This document shows, in pieces, positions 35,136 to 41,430 of a stretch of DNA of 64,000 bases. The stretch spans positions 62,001 through 126,000 of the forward strand of contig JACQAT010000007.1 in NCBI GenBank assembly GCA_016194865.1. Direction: 5' to 3'. The notes under the pieces are model-generated. The model was not told the origin of the DNA and did not search any database. It saw only the letters and a program-made list of their open reading frames with translations. The translations under genes and the position numbers were made by a program. Source of the DNA: Chloroflexota bacterium. GTDB taxonomy: Bacteria > Chloroflexota > Limnocylindria > P2-11E. Each line of letters starts with the position of its first letter. Position 1 is the first letter of the stretch.

Positions 35136-36242
35136 GTGGACGATCGTTTCGAACGCGCCTGGGCCGCGGGCTTCTTCGATGGCGATGGCTGGGCGTCTCG
35201 CGTGAAATTCGGTCGAGGCGAACAGCGGCATGCCCAGGCGCGGATCAATCAGGCGAGTGAGGGCGGGCCGCCGGAGGCGCTACGCCGCTTCCAGGCCGCG
35301 GTGGGAGGCATCGGCAACATCACTGGTCCGGTCTCGATCATCGGCCGTCGGGACATCTACGCGTGGACGGCGACAGGGTCGCGCGTGCGCACCGTCTGGG
35401 ATGCGCTGCATCCGTGGCTGTGTCCAACGAAGCTCGCGGCAACGGCTCAGGCGGCGGAGGTTCTCGTGCCACTCCATGTGGGGTTGCTCGAACCCGCGGA
35501 GCTCGTCGCCTGGGCGGCAGGATTCTTCGATGCCGAAGGTTGCGTGTCGCTCGTTAGACATCGGAGCCACGAGGGATACTTCTATCCGGAGGCCGCGGTC
35601 ACCCAAAGCTCAGCTTCGGGGCAGCCCGCGGAGCTGTTGCGCTTTCAGCTCGCAGTAAGTGGCCTCGGTCAGATCTACGGACCCTACCGACAGGCTGGCG
35701 CCACAAAGCCGGTCTTCAGGTGGAGGCTCCATCCGCCCGAGCAGATCCGTGCCGTGATGGCGCTCCTTCGGCCACGGTTGGGGATCATGAAGTGCGAGCA
35801 GGCTGATGCCGTGTTCGCGGTCATTGACGGTCAGCCTTCGCTGCCACGGGGGAATCCGGCGTGGGGCAGGCATAAGACACATTGCATCCACGGTCACGAA
35901 TATCGGACGGCGCGAGTTCGCCCGTATCGATCTCGTGGCGTCGGTATCCCGCGTCGTGAGAACAAGCAGTGTCTTGTCTGTTCCCGTGAGCAGGCGCTCG
36001 CAAAGCGTGACGCAAAGAGAAAGGCCGATGGCTTTGACACCATCGGCCTCTCAGAAAGTGCGGCCTTGTACTACTGGCTTGATCGACATAGGTTGGCGAC
36101 GCCGATCGGCGATCCCTGGCAGTACTGCTGTGCAATTCGACGACAAGGCGTGCTCGGACGGGACAGGCGACAAGGGCGCGCGTCGAGGATGAACTCAACC
36201 GCCACCGAAAGCCGATCAGTGATCGGCAGCGGTGGCGGTTGA
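35136..36242 (+). CDS. LAGLIDADG homing-endonuclease-like protein
   Basis: 368 residues, free-standing. Two helices of the LAGLIDADG type: WAAGFFDGDG (residues 9-18) and WAAGFFDAEG (126-135), each with an acidic residue in the catalytic place, so a single-chain two-motif protein. The C-terminal half has CIHGHEY ... CLVC, a zinc-knuckle-like block seen in phage and homing nucleases. GTG 35136 has TATGGT 5 nt upstream. Codon use is visibly less GC-rich than neighbours. The last about 70 codons run through palindromes (36022-36049, 36211-36227) and may not belong to the original gene. Confidence 0.75.
   Translation: MDDRFERAWAAGFFDGDGWASRVKFGRGEQRHAQARINQASEGGPPEALRRFQAAVGGIGNITGPVSIIGRRDIYAWTATGSRVRTVWDALHPWLCPTKLAATAQAAEVLVPLHVGLLEPAELVAWAAGFFDAEGCVSLVRHRSHEGYFYPEAAVTQSSASGQPAELLRFQLAVSGLGQIYGPYRQAGATKPVFRWRLHPPEQIRAVMALLRPRLGIMKCEQADAVFAVIDGQPSLPRGNPAWGRHKTHCIHGHEYRTARVRPYRSRGVGIPRRENKQCLVCSREQALAKRDAKRKADGFDTIGLSESAALYYWLDRHRLATPIGDPWQYCCAIRRQGVLGRDRRQGRASRMNSTATESRSVIGSGGG
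36022..36049. repeat. 10-bp hairpin inside the LAGLIDADG reading frame
   Basis: AGGCCGATGG (36022-36031), 8-nt loop, CCATCGGCCT (36040-36049). Not followed by a T-run. Shares the GCCGAT core with the repeats at 36196 and 40489. Confidence 0.55.
36196..36241. repeat. Long imperfect hairpin / island repeat copy
   Basis: Outer arms CAACCGCCACC (36196-36206) and GGTGGCGGTTG (36231-36241) pair perfectly over 11 bp; inner arms GCCGATCA and TGATCGGC pair over 8 bp. The left half (36196-36218) matches 40489-40511 at 21 of 23 bases. It overlaps the stop of the LAGLIDADG gene and could also terminate transcription. Confidence 0.75.
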
Positions 36243-36263
36243 TGTGGCCAGGGCGGGCGGGCG

Positions 36264-36269
36264 TAGGCT
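36264..36269 (+). promoter_or_regulatory. -10 box TAGGCT, leaderless promoter
   Basis: Ends 6 nt before ATG 36276; no SD precedes the start. Confidence 0.5.
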
Positions 36270-36275
36270 CGTGGC

Positions 36276-36536
36276 ATGGAGGAACGAAGATCGCGCAAGG
36301 ACCTCCAGAACGTCCATGAGCAGCAAATAATCGGCGAGTTGCTGGTGCAACTCGCTGGATCGGGCCGATCAGTCGGCACGCCGATATTCCGGGATGCTCC
36401 GGATTGCGTTGTGCCAATCGACGGGCTCCCAACCTCTGTCGAGCTCGCATGCGGATACGCAGAGGCGGCCGCAGCGCTATGGCAATTCGAGAGCGTGAAG
36501 ACGGTCGACATGGGTGAACCCATACATGAGCTCTAG
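36276..36536 (+). CDS. Hypothetical protein, 86 aa
   Basis: Unrecognised small acidic protein (MEERRSRKDLQNVHEQQIIG ...). Start supported by the TAGGCT box 6 nt upstream. Overlaps the next frame by 11 nt. Lies just after the 36.2 kb repeat, in the accessory region. Toxin-antitoxin-like size and pairing, but no family motif is seen. Confidence 0.5.
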   Translation: MEERRSRKDLQNVHEQQIIGELLVQLAGSGRSVGTPIFRDAPDCVVPIDGLPTSVELACGYAEAAAALWQFESVKTVDMGEPIHEL

Positions 36537-36813
36537 CGGATCGGCCTCGATGGCTTCCGAGCGGGTCGTCGTCGGTTCGCTCGTCGATGAACTTAGGTCG
36601 GCGCTCCAGGCGACACTCGACCATCATTGCCGCAGCGCGTTCGGCCGGTCATACCTGATCCCCGATCCGAGCCATGACGAGCTCGGCGCGTCGCTCGAAC
36701 AGCTCGTCGAGGGCATAGTGGTGCCTGCCGATTGCGGCTTCACCGGCATCTATGTGGCGGTGCCCCGATTCGGAACGCCGCGGCATTTTGCCCATCTGGC
36801 CGGAGCCGCGTGA
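36526..36813 (+). CDS. Hypothetical protein, about 95 aa
   Basis: Possible second gene of a pair with the 86-aa gene. ATG 36526 overlaps its 3' end (an in-frame GTG 36514 is also possible). Sequence (VGSLVDELRSALQATLDHHC ... EQLVEGIVVPADCGF) is weakly coding-like. No function recognised. Confidence 0.4.
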   Translation: MSSSGSASMASERVVVGSLVDELRSALQATLDHHCRSAFGRSYLIPDPSHDELGASLEQLVEGIVVPADCGFTGIYVAVPRFGTPRHFAHLAGAA

Positions 36814-36815
36814 GC

Positions 36816-38219
36816 TCAGGGCAGATGTAGCCCGACGCTCGGCTCGCGGAAGCGGAGGACACGCACGGGGCCTGCGTACTTGGCGTTGCGCGCGTTCCGG
36901 GCCGCGACACCCATCTCGAACAGAGCAGGGTTCAGCTGAGCGGCGAACTGCGCGTAGACGCCGGCCATCGGCGTATCCCGTTCGATCGTCAGCGGGATGT
37001 CGTCTGGGTGGCGCCCGACCGTGAGCGCGATCGCACCGGCGATGTTCGAGCGCGTCGAGCTCTTCTCCAGTTGCCGCTCGAGCGCGCTGGATACCAGGAT
37101 TAACGATCGCTCGGGCACTTGGAAGCCGCCGACGACGAGCACGAACGATGGCTGACCCTGCCGCTGCTTCTTGGAGCTGCGGAGCGCATCGTCCGCCACT
37201 CTGTCGGCCTCCGCCGGCGTGAGGTCCCGGCCATCGCGCAGTTCGTCGGGGACCTTCACCTCGGTGCCGACGCTCTCGCTGCCGACGACGACGCGGAGGT
37301 CGGTGGTGGCGTGCTGCGCGTCTTCTTCGACTAGCTCCACGAAGGCGTTTCCCCAACTGTGGAGCATCCGGTGGGCGGAGAGCACGACGACGTTGTGCGA
37401 ATAGCTGTGGGAGTCGCGCAGGTTCGCGACGATCTTCTTGCCGACCGCGTGACCAGACCAATTGCGCAAGGTGTTGGCCACATGCCGCAGCTCGATGAGC
37501 TCCGGAAGGTATTGCGTCGCACGTTTCTCGCGAACCGCGTCGCGATCGGCCTCGACTGCCTCGACGAGGCGCAAGAGGCGATGCGTGGTCGGACGGCCGG
37601 GTGTCGATCGGCGATCAGCGAAGGGGCGGTAGAAGGGCTCAATGTCGCTCAGCACGTCTTCGTGGTTGAGCGCCGAGGACCAGTGCAGAGCGATCGCGCG
37701 GCGGACGCGCTGGGCGCTCTGCTCCATGGCGCTCCACTCCCAGCGCTCGACCGTATCCGACTGAGCGGGGGCAAGCGGCCGGCGGAAGCCCAGGCGCTCG
37801 AAGAGGCGCTTCGAGCGGGCGTTCTCTGGCGGGATCTCGGCCGTGAGCCGGCGCGCGCCGCGGCTCCTCGCCCAGGTGACCACAGCATCGAGGACCTCGC
37901 GACCGTAACGCTCGTCCCAGAGGTCTTCGGCGATCTCGATGAAGGCGACGTACGCATGGTCCGCGCTCTTGTTGTCCCAGTCGATCGCAACAAAGCCAAT
38001 CATGTCGTGCTGACCGTGCTCGATCACGAACATGAAGCGTGTGGCCGGGTGCTCGAGCAGAACGCCAGCGGAGATGCGCAGCTGCGCGATGTCGTAGCCA
38101 CGGCGTGCGCTCCACGCGGGCTGACCCGCCCGAATGGCGCGTGCGTCGGCCTCCGAGACCAGATGCAGCGTCAGCCGCGTCGTGTAGATCGCCTCTGTCG
38201 GCGCGACGGCGGTCATCAC
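36816..38219 (-). CDS. GNAT acetyltransferase fused to an uncharacterised C-terminal domain
   Basis: 467 residues. N-terminal about 1-165 is a RimJ/RimL-like GNAT domain (TTRLTLHLVSEADARAI ... IEIAEDLWDERYGREVLDAVVTWA ... NARSKRLFERLGFRRP). The remaining 300 residues are unrelated to acetyltransferases: a helical part (LRLVEAVEADRDAVREKR), then strands with VVVGSESVGTEVKVPDEL, followed by SFVLVVGGFQVP. The E-x-K within a strand after an acidic region resembles PD-(D/E)xK nuclease cores, an inference only. The length and fusion are unusual. Lies inside the repeat-bracketed region. Confidence 0.8.
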   Translation of the reverse strand: MMTAVAPTEAIYTTRLTLHLVSEADARAIRAGQPAWSARRGYDIAQLRISAGVLLEHPATRFMFVIEHGQHDMIGFVAIDWDNKSADHAYVAFIEIAEDLWDERYGREVLDAVVTWARSRGARRLTAEIPPENARSKRLFERLGFRRPLAPAQSDTVERWEWSAMEQSAQRVRRAIALHWSSALNHEDVLSDIEPFYRPFADRRSTPGRPTTHRLLRLVEAVEADRDAVREKRATQYLPELIELRHVANTLRNWSGHAVGKKIVANLRDSHSYSHNVVVLSAHRMLHSWGNAFVELVEEDAQHATTDLRVVVGSESVGTEVKVPDELRDGRDLTPAEADRVADDALRSSKKQRQGQPSFVLVVGGFQVPERSLILVSSALERQLEKSSTRSNIAGAIALTVGRHPDDIPLTIERDTPMAGVYAQFAAQLNPALFEMGVAARNARNAKYAGPVRVLRFREPSVGLHLP

Positions 38220-38226
38220 GCTGCCA

Positions 38227-39405
38227 TCACGAGCAGCCGTGGTTCGCTTTCACGGTGTTCCAGATCGCCTGGGCCTGGTTCATCACGTCCTGCGCCGATG
38301 CGAAGACCGATGCGTCGGTGGCTCGGAGCGACGCGAGCTGTGTCGCGACCGAGGTGGCCGTAGACCGGTAGGTGTCGATTGTGGCCTGCTCGACGCCCGG
38401 CGCGAGAACGCCGCTCACGCTGAGGGGTGAGGCCGCGATCGCGTCGGCCAGCGCTTTGGCGGCTTGCTGCGTCTCGGCGACCCGCTGCTCGATGACGCTG
38501 AGGTTGGTCGTGATGGTCTGGGCGACCCTGGCGAAGCTGTTGCGGTCGTACACGAGCGAGGTGTTGAAGTCGTAGGCCATCGAGGTCATGAAGTCGTACC
38601 GGGCGGTGGTGCAGGCTCCGTACTTGTCCAGAGGCTCGCGGGAGTCCTTCTGAAACGTAGCGAAGTCCGCTTGGAGCTGCGTGAGGTCGCTCTGCTCGCC
38701 TTTGATGCTCGACGCGGCGTCGAGGATCTGGCTCTTGCGGTTGGCGGTTCCGCTGTTCAGCTGATTGATCATCGACTGAAGCTCCGCGGAGCGATCGCGT
38801 ACGGCTTGCACCAGCGCGGCGTTGCGGTCGTCTTGGGCCTTCTTGTCGGCTGCTGCTCGGTCCGCTGCGGTCTTGGCGAGAGCGAGCTCGAGCTGCCAGG
38901 CGGTGAGCGCGTCGTTGAACGCCGCCTGGGAGGCCGCCCGGTAGGTCGCGGTCTGCAGCTGCCCGGTCTTGTCCGGGTAGGTCAGCGCGATCTGGTCACC
39001 ACTGCGCCTTCCACTGAACGAGATGCCGGTCGTGCCGAGGAACGAGCCGGTCGTGATCGTGAGCGCGGATCCACCATCGGTCGTGCCGGTGACCGGGTTG
39101 GTCGTCGCCTTCGTGTTGCCCTTCCCGTCGGGTTCCACGCTGATCAGCGATCCCGAGACGCTCGTCCCAGACTGGGTCAGGCTGATCCAGCCCATCCAGT
39201 ACGGACGCTGGTCGGTCATGAAGTTCCCCGTGAAGTCGCTCGGCCCCCGCTCAACGGTCGTCGAAACGCGGTTCGTCGGCGATGCCGAAGCGACGACCGC
39301 CGCGCTGGCGGTGCTGGCGCTGCCGGAGGTGGCGGCGCCGCTGCCGCACGCGGCGATGAGCGCGGCGCCCAGCACGAGCGAAAGCGCTGAAGTCTTCGGT
39401 CTCAC
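38227..39405 (-). CDS. Lipoprotein with coiled-coil segment
   Basis: 392 residues. Signal peptide with lipobox (LVLGAALIAACGSG), a Ser/Thr/Ala-rich linker, a beta-rich domain (ITTGSFLGTTGISFSGRRSG) and a long helical coiled-coil region (AFNDALTAWQLELALAKTAADRAAADKKAQDDRNAAL) through the C-terminal half. Surface-anchored; function unknown. GTG 39405 has GGAGGAAGG upstream and TAGCAT further back (39429-39424). Confidence 0.75.
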   Translation of the reverse strand: MRPKTSALSLVLGAALIAACGSGAATSGSASTASAAVVASASPTNRVSTTVERGPSDFTGNFMTDQRPYWMGWISLTQSGTSVSGSLISVEPDGKGNTKATTNPVTGTTDGGSALTITTGSFLGTTGISFSGRRSGDQIALTYPDKTGQLQTATYRAASQAAFNDALTAWQLELALAKTAADRAAADKKAQDDRNAALVQAVRDRSAELQSMINQLNSGTANRKSQILDAASSIKGEQSDLTQLQADFATFQKDSREPLDKYGACTTARYDFMTSMAYDFNTSLVYDRNSFARVAQTITTNLSVIEQRVAETQQAAKALADAIAASPLSVSGVLAPGVEQATIDTYRSTATSVATQLASLRATDASVFASAQDVMNQAQAIWNTVKANHGCS

Positions 39406-39440
39406 GGCCCTTCCTCCGCAGCAATGCTAGAGCGACGCCC

Positions 39441-39446
39441 TAGCCT
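39441..39446 (+). promoter_or_regulatory. -10 box TAGCCT, leaderless promoter
   Basis: Ends 6 nt before ATG 39453; no SD before the start. Confidence 0.5.
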
Positions 39447-39452
39447 GATTGC

Positions 39453-39971
39453 ATGGATTTCACGGGCGTCCTGCCTGGCGTCGCCGGACGCGCTCTGGGA
39501 TGGGCATGGGACCACCTGACGCATCGGCGCGAGCGCGAGCTGCAACGCCCGCTGACGCTCGAGATGCGCTCGATCCTCTTCGCCCTGCGCGAGGCCGCGA
39601 TGCTCTTGATGGCGACCAGCGTCCGTCGCGGAGCGGCGAAGAGCCCCGCGGAGGTCGACGCGGCGAATCGCGCCATGGTGGGAAGCTGGGTCGAATACGA
39701 GACGCTCTGGAAGGCACGGCTGCCGCGGTATCGTGAGCTCAACGATCTGCTCCCGCAGTACGACACGCGTGCCGAACGCACGGCGGCCGCCACGTACAAC
39801 GTCGGTCGCCGCATCGGTAACGTCGTGGGCTCGACTCCGAGTGCTGACGTGGGCGACCACTTCGCGGCGCTCCATGAGGCGATCCTCGAGTGGATCACCG
39901 CGATCGGTCGCGATCTTGGACAGAAGACCACGCTTCGCACGCGGACCGAAGGACAGGCGCGCCGACGCTAG
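39453..39971 (+). CDS. Hypothetical helical protein, 172 aa
   Basis: Unrecognised, predicted all-helical: VAGRALGWAWDHLTHRRERELQRPLTLEMRSILFALREA. First of two adjacent small genes (next starts directly after its TAG). Leaderless start supported by TAGCCT. Possible membrane association at the N-terminus is weak. Confidence 0.55.
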   Translation: MDFTGVLPGVAGRALGWAWDHLTHRRERELQRPLTLEMRSILFALREAAMLLMATSVRRGAAKSPAEVDAANRAMVGSWVEYETLWKARLPRYRELNDLLPQYDTRAERTAAATYNVGRRIGNVVGSTPSADVGDHFAALHEAILEWITAIGRDLGQKTTLRTRTEGQARRR

Positions 39972-40430
39972 ATGTCGAACATCGTTCAGCGGCTGGAAGC
40001 GTTCAACCGCGATCTCGCGGAGTACCGCGGGATCATTTCGGATGTCGGTCGGCGCGCTCCTGGTGAGGACTGGTACGGAGCGGCGATCCCGGCGGAGCGA
40101 CAGCGGCTGGACGAACTGTGTGCGCGCATCGCCGAGCAGTACGGCGGGCTGCACGAGGCGATCGTCGAGGCGCTGGGACACGAGCCGCTTGTTGAGCAGT
40201 ACGGCATCGTCGGCGGCGACCTGTTCATACTCGCGGCCGAGAATCCTGCGGCTAACCCCTGGCTCACCGCGATCATGGAGATGAGCGGACCCGCCGTCCT
40301 TCAGGCAATCGGGTACCACCGCGCGCGCCGGCGCAGCGCCATTTGGCGCGGAGCGGCGCGCGCGTACGGCGAGCTCAAGGACTTGGCGCGCATCATCGCG
40401 GAGTACCTGAAGATCGCACGTCCGGGCTGA
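39972..40430 (+). CDS. Hypothetical helical protein, 152 aa
   Basis: Begins immediately after the preceding stop (TAG-ATG). Helical, charged (IVQRLEAFNRDLAEYRGIISDVG; RRRSAIWRGAARAYGELKDLARIIAEYLK). Similar size and helical style to its neighbour, but no clear homology is visible. Function unknown. Confidence 0.55.
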   Translation: MSNIVQRLEAFNRDLAEYRGIISDVGRRAPGEDWYGAAIPAERQRLDELCARIAEQYGGLHEAIVEALGHEPLVEQYGIVGGDLFILAAENPAANPWLTAIMEMSGPAVLQAIGYHRARRRSAIWRGAARAYGELKDLARIIAEYLKIARPG

Positions 40431-40731
40431 GGCCCGCGTGGGGTGATCTACGGCTGAAGGAATTCCAGAAGCGCAAGATGCTCAGCGCCAACCGCCAACG
40501 AACGCCGATCAACTGACCGGCTCCAACCGCCAACGAACGCCGATGACGGGCCGTGTCGGCGACATTGATCGCGAAAGATTGGCGGCTGGCGTAATCGCCA
40601 AACTATGCCGATCAGACCTTTCGGGCCGAATGCACATCACTCGAGGTGGTGCAACCGCCATTCAATAACGATCACCCCGCCTTTCGACGGGGTGATCGCG
40701 AGTCACCGCCAAACTATGCCGATCAGACCAA
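40431..40731. repeat. Intergenic block of degenerate repeats and hairpins
   Basis: About 300 bp without a gene. 40488-40509 recurs exactly at 40523-40544 (35-bp step). CGCCAAACTATGCCGATCAGACC-type segments at 40596-40618 and 40707-40729 are identical over 23 bases. A partial inverted copy (TTGGCGGCTGG) lies at 40579-40589. All share a CCGCCAA ... GCCGATCA core also found at 36196. Spacing is irregular, so it is not a CRISPR array. Confidence 0.8.
40669..40698 (-). terminator. Strong hairpin downstream of ferredoxin gene
   Basis: CGATCACCCCG (40669-40679), 8-nt loop, CGGGGTGATCG (40688-40698), 11 bp perfect. On the minus strand it is followed by TTATTGAA, a weak T-rich tail, so it probably terminates the ferredoxin transcript. 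Confidence 0.6.
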
Positions 40732-40974
40732 CTACTTGTTGAAGTAGGCCTTATTGATCTCGATGTAGTTCTTCCACTTATCGGGGACAGCGTCCTCAGG
40801 GAAGATCGCGCTCACCGGGCACACCGACTCGCATGCGCCGCAGTCGATGCACTCGTCGGGATGGATGTAGTACATGTTGTCCGCGTCCGTCGTATAGATA
40901 CAGTCGACAGGGCAGACATCTACGCAACTTGCATCTTTAACGGTGATGCAGGGCTCTGTGATCACGTAGGCCAT
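40732..40974 (-). CDS. fdxA: Ferredoxin, 7Fe/8Fe (FdxA-like)
   Basis: 80-residue electron carrier: ITEPCITVKDASCVDVCPVDCI for the first cluster and CIDCGACESVCPVSAIF for the second. The pattern fits a 3Fe-4S/4Fe-4S or two-4Fe protein of the actinobacterial FdxA type. SD AGAGGTGG precedes ATG 40974. Probable partner for the AOR and other oxidoreductases. Confidence 0.93.
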   Translation of the reverse strand: MAYVITEPCITVKDASCVDVCPVDCIYTTDADNMYYIHPDECIDCGACESVCPVSAIFPEDAVPDKWKNYIEINKAYFNK

Positions 40975-41058: not shown

Positions 41059-41430
41059 ATGAGCGAAACCGCCGAGTTCCCCTTGCCCGCCGATGTGACC
41101 GAGGAAGAGCGCGAGACCGCGAAGCGCGAGATCGGCAGGCACACGACCGTCACCGAGGCCAAGGAGCGGGTCGTCCGCTTCGAGGGCGAGCTCATCGGTC
41201 AGACCGGCCCGATCTGGCACTTCCAATACACACGCATGTACAAGCTGCCCAAGGGGTATCTCGTCGCGGCCCACGACCTGCGCGAGGGGATCAGGGTCGC
41301 CTTCGCGGACGATCCGGCGAAGCTCTCCGCGTCCTTCGACCAGGAGGCCGTGCGCGAGTTCATCGACGACGAGCTGCGCTTCCGGAAAGTCCTCCCCGAC
41401 GAGCACCGAGCCGAGCAGCCGGTCTCGTAA
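41059..41430 (+). CDS. Hypothetical protein, 123 aa
   Basis: Unrecognised soluble protein: helical acidic N-terminus (TEEERETAKREIGRHTTVTEAKERVVRF), then a strand-rich centre (GPIWHFQYTRMYKLPKGYLVAAHDL). Start supported by TATCAT at 41043-41048. Divergent from the ferredoxin gene. Its 3' end overlaps an open DUF309 frame. Confidence 0.65.
   Translation: MSETAEFPLPADVTEEERETAKREIGRHTTVTEAKERVVRFEGELIGQTGPIWHFQYTRMYKLPKGYLVAAHDLREGIRVAFADDPAKLSASFDQEAVREFIDDELRFRKVLPDEHRAEQPVS

What the first reader, a model, noticed from the sequence alone, without database searches (positions are those of the whole stretch)
36816..38219. Acetyltransferase fused to a possible PD-(D/E)xK-like domain
The 300-residue C-terminal part has strand-E-x-K (GTEVKVP) in a context reminiscent of nuclease cores and no known acetyltransferase partner. 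Such a fusion in an island could be a defence or toxin-like module.
Basis: inference. Interest (0 to 1): 0.6.

Follow-up and report, generated by a model that had tools for sequence, protein, structure and literature searches.

The report
GNAT–orphan-domain fusion on mobile insert
A bacterial gene joins an ordinary acetyltransferase to a 300-residue domain with no known relatives that carries sequence marks of a DNA-cutting (PD-(D/E)xK) enzyme; it is cargo of a small mobile insertion, but that the domain is a nuclease is suggested, not shown.

Summary
The ORF is real: window 36816-38219, minus strand, 467 aa, one open frame with coding-like codon usage. Residues 13-147 are a GNAT acetyltransferase (Pfam E 1.9e-14). 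Residues 165-467 match no family library; no relative was found in phages, plasmids, 177 genomes of the class or 400 of the phylum. The nuclease reading rests on one in-order signature, D307-L-R-V-x12-E320-V-K322, then a K/Q-rich stretch and a hydrophobic strand. It is rarer than chance (full pattern 8/5000 shuffles, 1 of 67 window genes), but the pattern was written after seeing the motif. Two single-sequence AlphaFold models failed (pLDDT 40 and 36), so the decisive test is inconclusive. The island is real and sharper than stated: relatives have the flanking LAGLIDADG-like and ferredoxin genes adjacent; here about 4.65 kb (36076-40730) is inserted, bordered by a 21-nt repeat found six times in this assembly, all at the two ends, with a possible ACTACT target duplication and no recognisable transposase. 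Best reading: a cargo gene for a GNAT plus probable PD-(D/E)xK protein, perhaps a conflict effector. Moderate interest.

The parts
36816..38219 (-). 467-aa gene: GNAT acetyltransferase (residues 13-147) followed by an orphan domain (about 165-467)
37779..38183 (-). GNAT domain, residues 13-147; motif A loop reads LWDERYGRE (first glycine of the usual Q/RxxGxG/A replaced by R); motif B PENARSKRLFERLGF is canonical
   Evidence: Pfam PF00583 1.9e-14, PF13302 2.3e-12; PDB relatives 2ae6, 3eo4
36819..37727 (-). orphan C-terminal part, residues 165-467
   Evidence: no match in four family libraries, phages or plasmids; one chance PDB hit, E 0.39
37254..37301 (-). PD-(D/E)xK-like signature: D307-L-R-V-x12-E320-V-K322; K/Q-rich stretch KKQ 350-352 and hydrophobic strand VLVVGG follow
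   Evidence: inspection of the sequence
38227..39405 (-). gene directly upstream on the same strand, ends 7 nt before the start of the fusion gene: lipoprotein-like (lipobox LIAACGS, by inspection), also an orphan
36076..40730 (.). inferred mobile insertion (4,655 bp) between the LAGLIDADG-like gene and the ferredoxin gene; exact ends are inferred from the repeats
   Evidence: synteny with relatives; end repeats
36076..36100 (.). left terminal repeat GGCTTGATCGACATAGGTTGGCGAC
40705..40730 (.). right terminal repeat, reverse complement TGGTCTGATCGGCATAGTTTGGCGGT
36198..36218 (+). internal copy of the 21-nt element repeat, near the left end
40491..40614 (+). three internal copies of the 21-nt repeat near the right end (40491, 40526, 40594)
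36070..36075 (.). ACTACT, left copy of a possible 6-bp target-site duplication
40731..40736 (.). ACTACT, right copy of the possible target-site duplication (overlaps the ferredoxin stop codon)
39453..40430 (+). two further cargo ORFs (172 and 152 aa) without a significant family match

Best explanation
A cargo gene of a small, apparently non-autonomous mobile element encodes a two-domain protein: an N-terminal RimJ/RimL-type GNAT acetyltransferase and a C-terminal domain that is probably a divergent PD-(D/E)xK (restriction-endonuclease-fold) module with D307, E320 and K322 as its metal-binding/catalytic set. Most likely it serves in conflict with phages, plasmids or competitors: the nuclease-like part would act on nucleic acid, and the GNAT part would acetylate a protein or small-molecule target, or regulate the nuclease part. 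Shown: the ORF, the GNAT domain, the orphan status of the rest within the searches made, the insertion. Inferred: nuclease fold (about 0.6 to 0.65), catalytic activity (about 0.45), conflict role (about 0.3).
For: Single open frame with coding-like codon usage through both halves. GNAT domain significant. D-h-x-h...h-E-h-K signature followed by a K/Q-rich stretch and a hydrophobic strand: 8/5000 shuffles, 1/67 window genes. The DNA pattern for DLRV...VEVK in viral contigs returned 4 ORFs, 3 of which look like small PD-(D/E)xK proteins (one a sub-threshold VRR_NUC match, E 2e-4). Cargo position in an insertion absent from relatives and bounded by element-specific repeats. GNAT and REase domains both occur as variable N-terminal domains of DndF (PMC10853773), a precedent for both domain types in defence systems though not for their fusion.
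Against: No family, PDB or homologue support for the C-terminal part. AlphaFold single-sequence models have no confidence there and Foldseek of the core finds no nuclease. hhalign of the core against three phage PD-(D/E)xK-type proteins is at noise level. The looser DNA pattern in 301 phylum genomes hit NuoD and a MerR-type protein, not nucleases. The helix before the first strand lacks the glutamate seen in many PD-(D/E)xK families (inspection, general knowledge). Nothing direct speaks for a conflict role.
Confidence: 0.45

Rival explanations
1. The C-terminal domain is a fast-evolving or lineage-specific domain unrelated to nucleases (for example substrate-binding or scaffolding) attached to an ordinary GNAT modification or resistance enzyme; the ExK motif is a coincidence.
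For: No homologue or fold support; loose D..ExK motifs occur in 13 of 67 window genes; the stricter motif also occurs by chance (NuoD and MerR-type hits).
Against: The stricter ordered signature is in 0.16-1% of shuffles, and motif, K/Q-rich stretch and strand come in the order expected for the fold.
Confidence: 0.36
2. The C-terminal domain has the PD-(D/E)xK fold but is not a cutting enzyme; it binds nucleic acid and brings the acetyltransferase to its substrate (ribosome, tRNA or a DNA-bound protein).
For: Missing helix-1 glutamate (inspection); inactive REase-fold domains are reported in conflict systems (PMC10853773).
Against: D, E and K of the core motif are all present.
Confidence: 0.17

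Closest known systems
GNAT acetyltransferases of the RimJ/RimL type (Pfam PF13302 / PF00583; PDB 2ae6, 3eo4)
   Same: Residues 13-147 match over the whole domain; motif B is canonical.
   Different: The acetyl-CoA loop has R for the first glycine (3eo4 also departs there: LWGKHIGR); 300 extra C-terminal residues.
PD-(D/E)xK / restriction-endonuclease-fold nucleases (e.g. VRR-NUC PF08774)
   Same: Order D-x-h-x(n)-E-x-K, then K/Q-rich stretch and hydrophobic strand.
   Different: No significant sequence similarity to any known family; fold not shown; no helix-1 glutamate.
DndF variable effector domains (GNAT or NERD REase, PMC10853773)
   Same: Shows GNAT and REase domains used as alternative effector domains in a defence protein.
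   Different: There they sit on a large NTPase core in Dnd loci; no Dnd gene was recognised among the neighbouring ORFs examined.
Transposons with multiple end-binding repeats (Tn7-like, Tn5053/Tn402-like), from general knowledge
   Same: Inverted ends with several subterminal ~20-bp repeats and a short target duplication.
   Different: No transposase or other mobility gene recognised inside; smaller; relationship not tested by sequence.

Membership tests
GNAT acetyltransferase | GNAT fold by sequence profile over the full domain | tested here: met
   PF00583 1.9e-14 and PF13302 2.3e-12, both above their cut-offs; phmmer to PDB GNATs
GNAT acetyltransferase | acetyl-CoA pyrophosphate loop Q/RxxGxG/A | tested here: inconclusive
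   Loop reads WDERYGRE; second glycine kept, first replaced by R; a solved GNAT (3eo4) departs similarly
PD-(D/E)xK nuclease | D...ExK catalytic motif on adjacent strands | tested here: inconclusive
   D307, E320, K322 present and rarer than in shuffles; strand positions not predicted with confidence
PD-(D/E)xK nuclease | alpha-beta-beta-beta-alpha-beta core fold | tested here: inconclusive
   AlphaFold pLDDT 40 and 36, Foldseek of the core without meaningful hits
PD-(D/E)xK nuclease | significant profile match to a clan family | tested here: not met
   No Pfam, NCBIfam, PADLOC or PHROGs family at E up to 10; HMMER filters drop most weak matches
PD-(D/E)xK nuclease | metal-dependent phosphodiesterase activity | not testable with these tools
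   needs purified protein
Known anti-phage defence system | match to a defence family model or neighbouring defence genes | tested here: not met
   No PADLOC model for this protein; no Pfam match naming a defence family in the other cargo genes; neighbours not scanned against PADLOC
Toxin-antitoxin / toxin-immunity pair | small partner gene that neutralises the toxin | not tested
   Upstream partner is a 392-aa lipoprotein-like protein without a family; no assay possible
Tn7-like / Tn5053-like transposon | terminal inverted repeats with several subterminal binding repeats | tested here: met
   six copies of a 21-nt repeat, only at the two ends in the assembly
Tn7-like / Tn5053-like transposon | encodes TnsB/TniA-type transposase and AAA+ partner | tested here: not met
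   none of the cargo ORFs matches a transposase family; the only rve match in the assembly is an IS-type rve_3 gene on another contig

The most novel reading that the evidence does not exclude
A new class of mobile-element-borne effector in which an acetyltransferase and a previously undescribed PD-(D/E)xK nuclease family act in one polypeptide, for example with acetylation controlling or complementing nucleic-acid cleavage.
Probability: 0.25. Interest if true: 0.6.

Novelty: new variant of a known kind. Interest (0 to 1): 0.4.

Why it matters
If the C-terminal domain is a nuclease, this would be a GNAT-REase fusion for which I found no precedent in the papers searched, and it would point to a defence or competition cargo in a poorly studied bacterial lineage. 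The small insertion with its own repeat set is also a marker by which sister elements, with other cargo or with the transposase, could be found. If it is not a nuclease, it is an orphan domain on an ordinary acetyltransferase and of local interest only.

Tried and rejected
Weak hits of the C-terminal part in relatives (for example L017, L021, L036-L040): those re-aligned or read look like chance or off-frame matches, and L036 gave no alignment at all. Degenerate DNA pattern DLRV...EVK in viral contigs and 301 phylum genomes: found short phage PD-(D/E)xK-type proteins, NuoD and a MerR-type gene, no relative. Exact-peptide scans of 85,000 genomes (twice) and of viral contigs: nothing, but these reach only close relatives. 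tblastn in plasmids with the whole protein: GNAT-region hits and one stray hit to residues 399-467. A search in another phylum was not possible because only genomes with a G handle can be centres. Single-sequence hhalign against phage nucleases with window proteins as background: noise. Literature: GNAT and REase domains both in defence proteins, but no fusion of the two found.

Full report
Observation. The ORF at 36816-38219 is on the minus strand, 467 aa, with no stop inside. Its GC3 is 0.84 against mostly 0.85-0.96 for neighbouring genes, and a codon-usage score trained on four window genes is positive in 11 of 12 blocks of 40 codons, so both halves read as coding. It starts 7 nt after the stop of the gene in front of it (38227-39405, same strand), so the two are probably co-transcribed (inference).

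N-terminal part. Residues 13-147 are a GNAT domain (PF00583 E 1.9e-14, PF13302 E 2.3e-12), closest in the PDB by sequence to 2ae6 and 3eo4. The acetyl-CoA loop has lost its first glycine (WDERYGRE), as 3eo4 also departs there (WGKHIGR); motif B is canonical. Whether it is active cannot be told from sequence. The Foldseek search of the full-length model, although the model is poor, finds GNATs as its best hits.

C-terminal part. Residues 165-467 match no Pfam, NCBIfam, PADLOC or PHROGs family at E up to 10, and in the PDB only a chance hit at E 0.39. tblastn finds nothing in 72,556 plasmids or 50,697 phage records. In 177 genomes of the same class, 400 of the phylum and 47 of another class of the phylum the only convincing match is the query itself; weaker matches that I re-aligned or read look like chance. 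Scans of about 85,000 genomes and of viral contigs with exact 8-residue peptides were also empty, but these reach only close relatives. So the same fusion was not found elsewhere, within these limits; an 'orphan' here means no relative at this sensitivity, not that none exists.

Nuclease signature. By eye the stretch reads: helix NVVVLSAHRMLHSWG, strand AFVELVEE, TDLRVVVG (D307), GTEVKVP (E320, K322), helix with KKQ (350-352), strand SFVLVVGGF, helix, strand IAGAIALTVG. That is the order of a PD-(D/E)xK core, without the helix-1 glutamate of many families. A loose D..ExK means nothing (13 of 67 window genes). The stricter form is in 1% of shuffles of the C-terminal part, and with the K/Q stretch and strand in 0.16%, and in no other window gene. 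The pattern was defined after seeing the motif, so these figures overstate the case. Back-translated into DNA, DLRV...VEVK in viral contigs gave four ORFs, three of them small proteins of PD-(D/E)xK appearance, one matching VRR_NUC just below its cut-off. In 301 phylum genomes a looser version gave NuoD (two genomes) and a MerR-type protein.

Fold test. Neither gives a usable C-terminal fold, the two disagree on secondary structure, and Foldseek of the core is noise. With no homologues there is no alignment to improve it. The test is inconclusive, not negative.

Island. The anchor gene next to ferredoxin (41059-41430) was found in 25 of 28 genomes searched in the family. In the fetched regions of relatives none of the genes between the LAGLIDADG-like gene and ferredoxin of this window is found; in five of them (L064, L065, L068-L070) the LAGLIDADG-like gene stands directly next to ferredoxin, and in L067 ferredoxin follows the DUF2203 gene. 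In the window about 4.65 kb separates them. The LAGLIDADG-like protein runs about 70 residues past the homologous end, as expected if the insertion lies at its 3' end. A 21-nt repeat, ACCGCCAAMNWANGCCGATCA, occurs six times in the window with up to three mismatches (0 expected in shuffles) and nowhere else in the 1.38-Mb assembly (66% complete), all at the two ends. The outermost copies are inverted: GGCTTGATCGACATAGGTTGGCGAC at 36076 and, in reverse complement, TGGTCTGATCGGCATAGTTTGGCGGT ending at 40730, with ACTACT on both sides. Two relatives (L064, L069) keep TACTACTTGTT at the ferredoxin end, close to the predicted empty site. A free gapped alignment of the two ends is not by itself significant (score 36, shuffles up to 41), so the case rests on the repeat search and the synteny. 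No transposase family was recognised in the cargo, so the element is probably non-autonomous (inference). The only rve-type transposase found in the assembly is an IS-like gene on another contig. The class-wide pattern search found only scattered single imperfect copies in other genomes.

Mechanism. Shown: GNAT plus orphan domain in one polypeptide, carried by a lineage-specific insertion. Inferred: PD-(D/E)xK fold (about 0.6 to 0.65); nucleic-acid cleavage (about 0.45) or binding only (about 0.17); a conflict role (about 0.3), for which cargo position and the use of GNAT and REase domains as alternative effector domains in DndF (PMC10853773) are the only arguments. Against it: no PADLOC hit and a lipoprotein-like neighbour.

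Verdict.

Noticed in passing
window 36076-40730: Small insertion with six copies of a 21-nt repeat confined to its two ends, a possible ACTACT target duplication and no recognisable transposase; looks like a non-autonomous transposon with cargo.
   Followed up: partly
window 35136-36242; L064, L065, L068, L069, L070: A free-standing LAGLIDADG-like gene kept at the same place (next to ferredoxin) in several relatives of different genera; L067 lacks it, L064 has it broken over two frames.
   Followed up: partly
window 38227-39405: Lipoprotein-like, coiled-coil-like 392-aa protein with no meaningful relative in the class; probably co-transcribed with the fusion gene.
   Followed up: partly
window 39453-40430: Two adjacent cargo ORFs that share a short similar stretch (..LHEAI..), perhaps diverged duplicates.
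   Followed up: no
window 36276-36813: Two small plus-strand ORFs (86 and 99 aa) facing the fusion gene, without family; coding status unclear.
   Followed up: partly
window 36190-36245 and 40670-40700: Near-perfect hairpins overlapping or next to copies of the element repeat.
   Followed up: no
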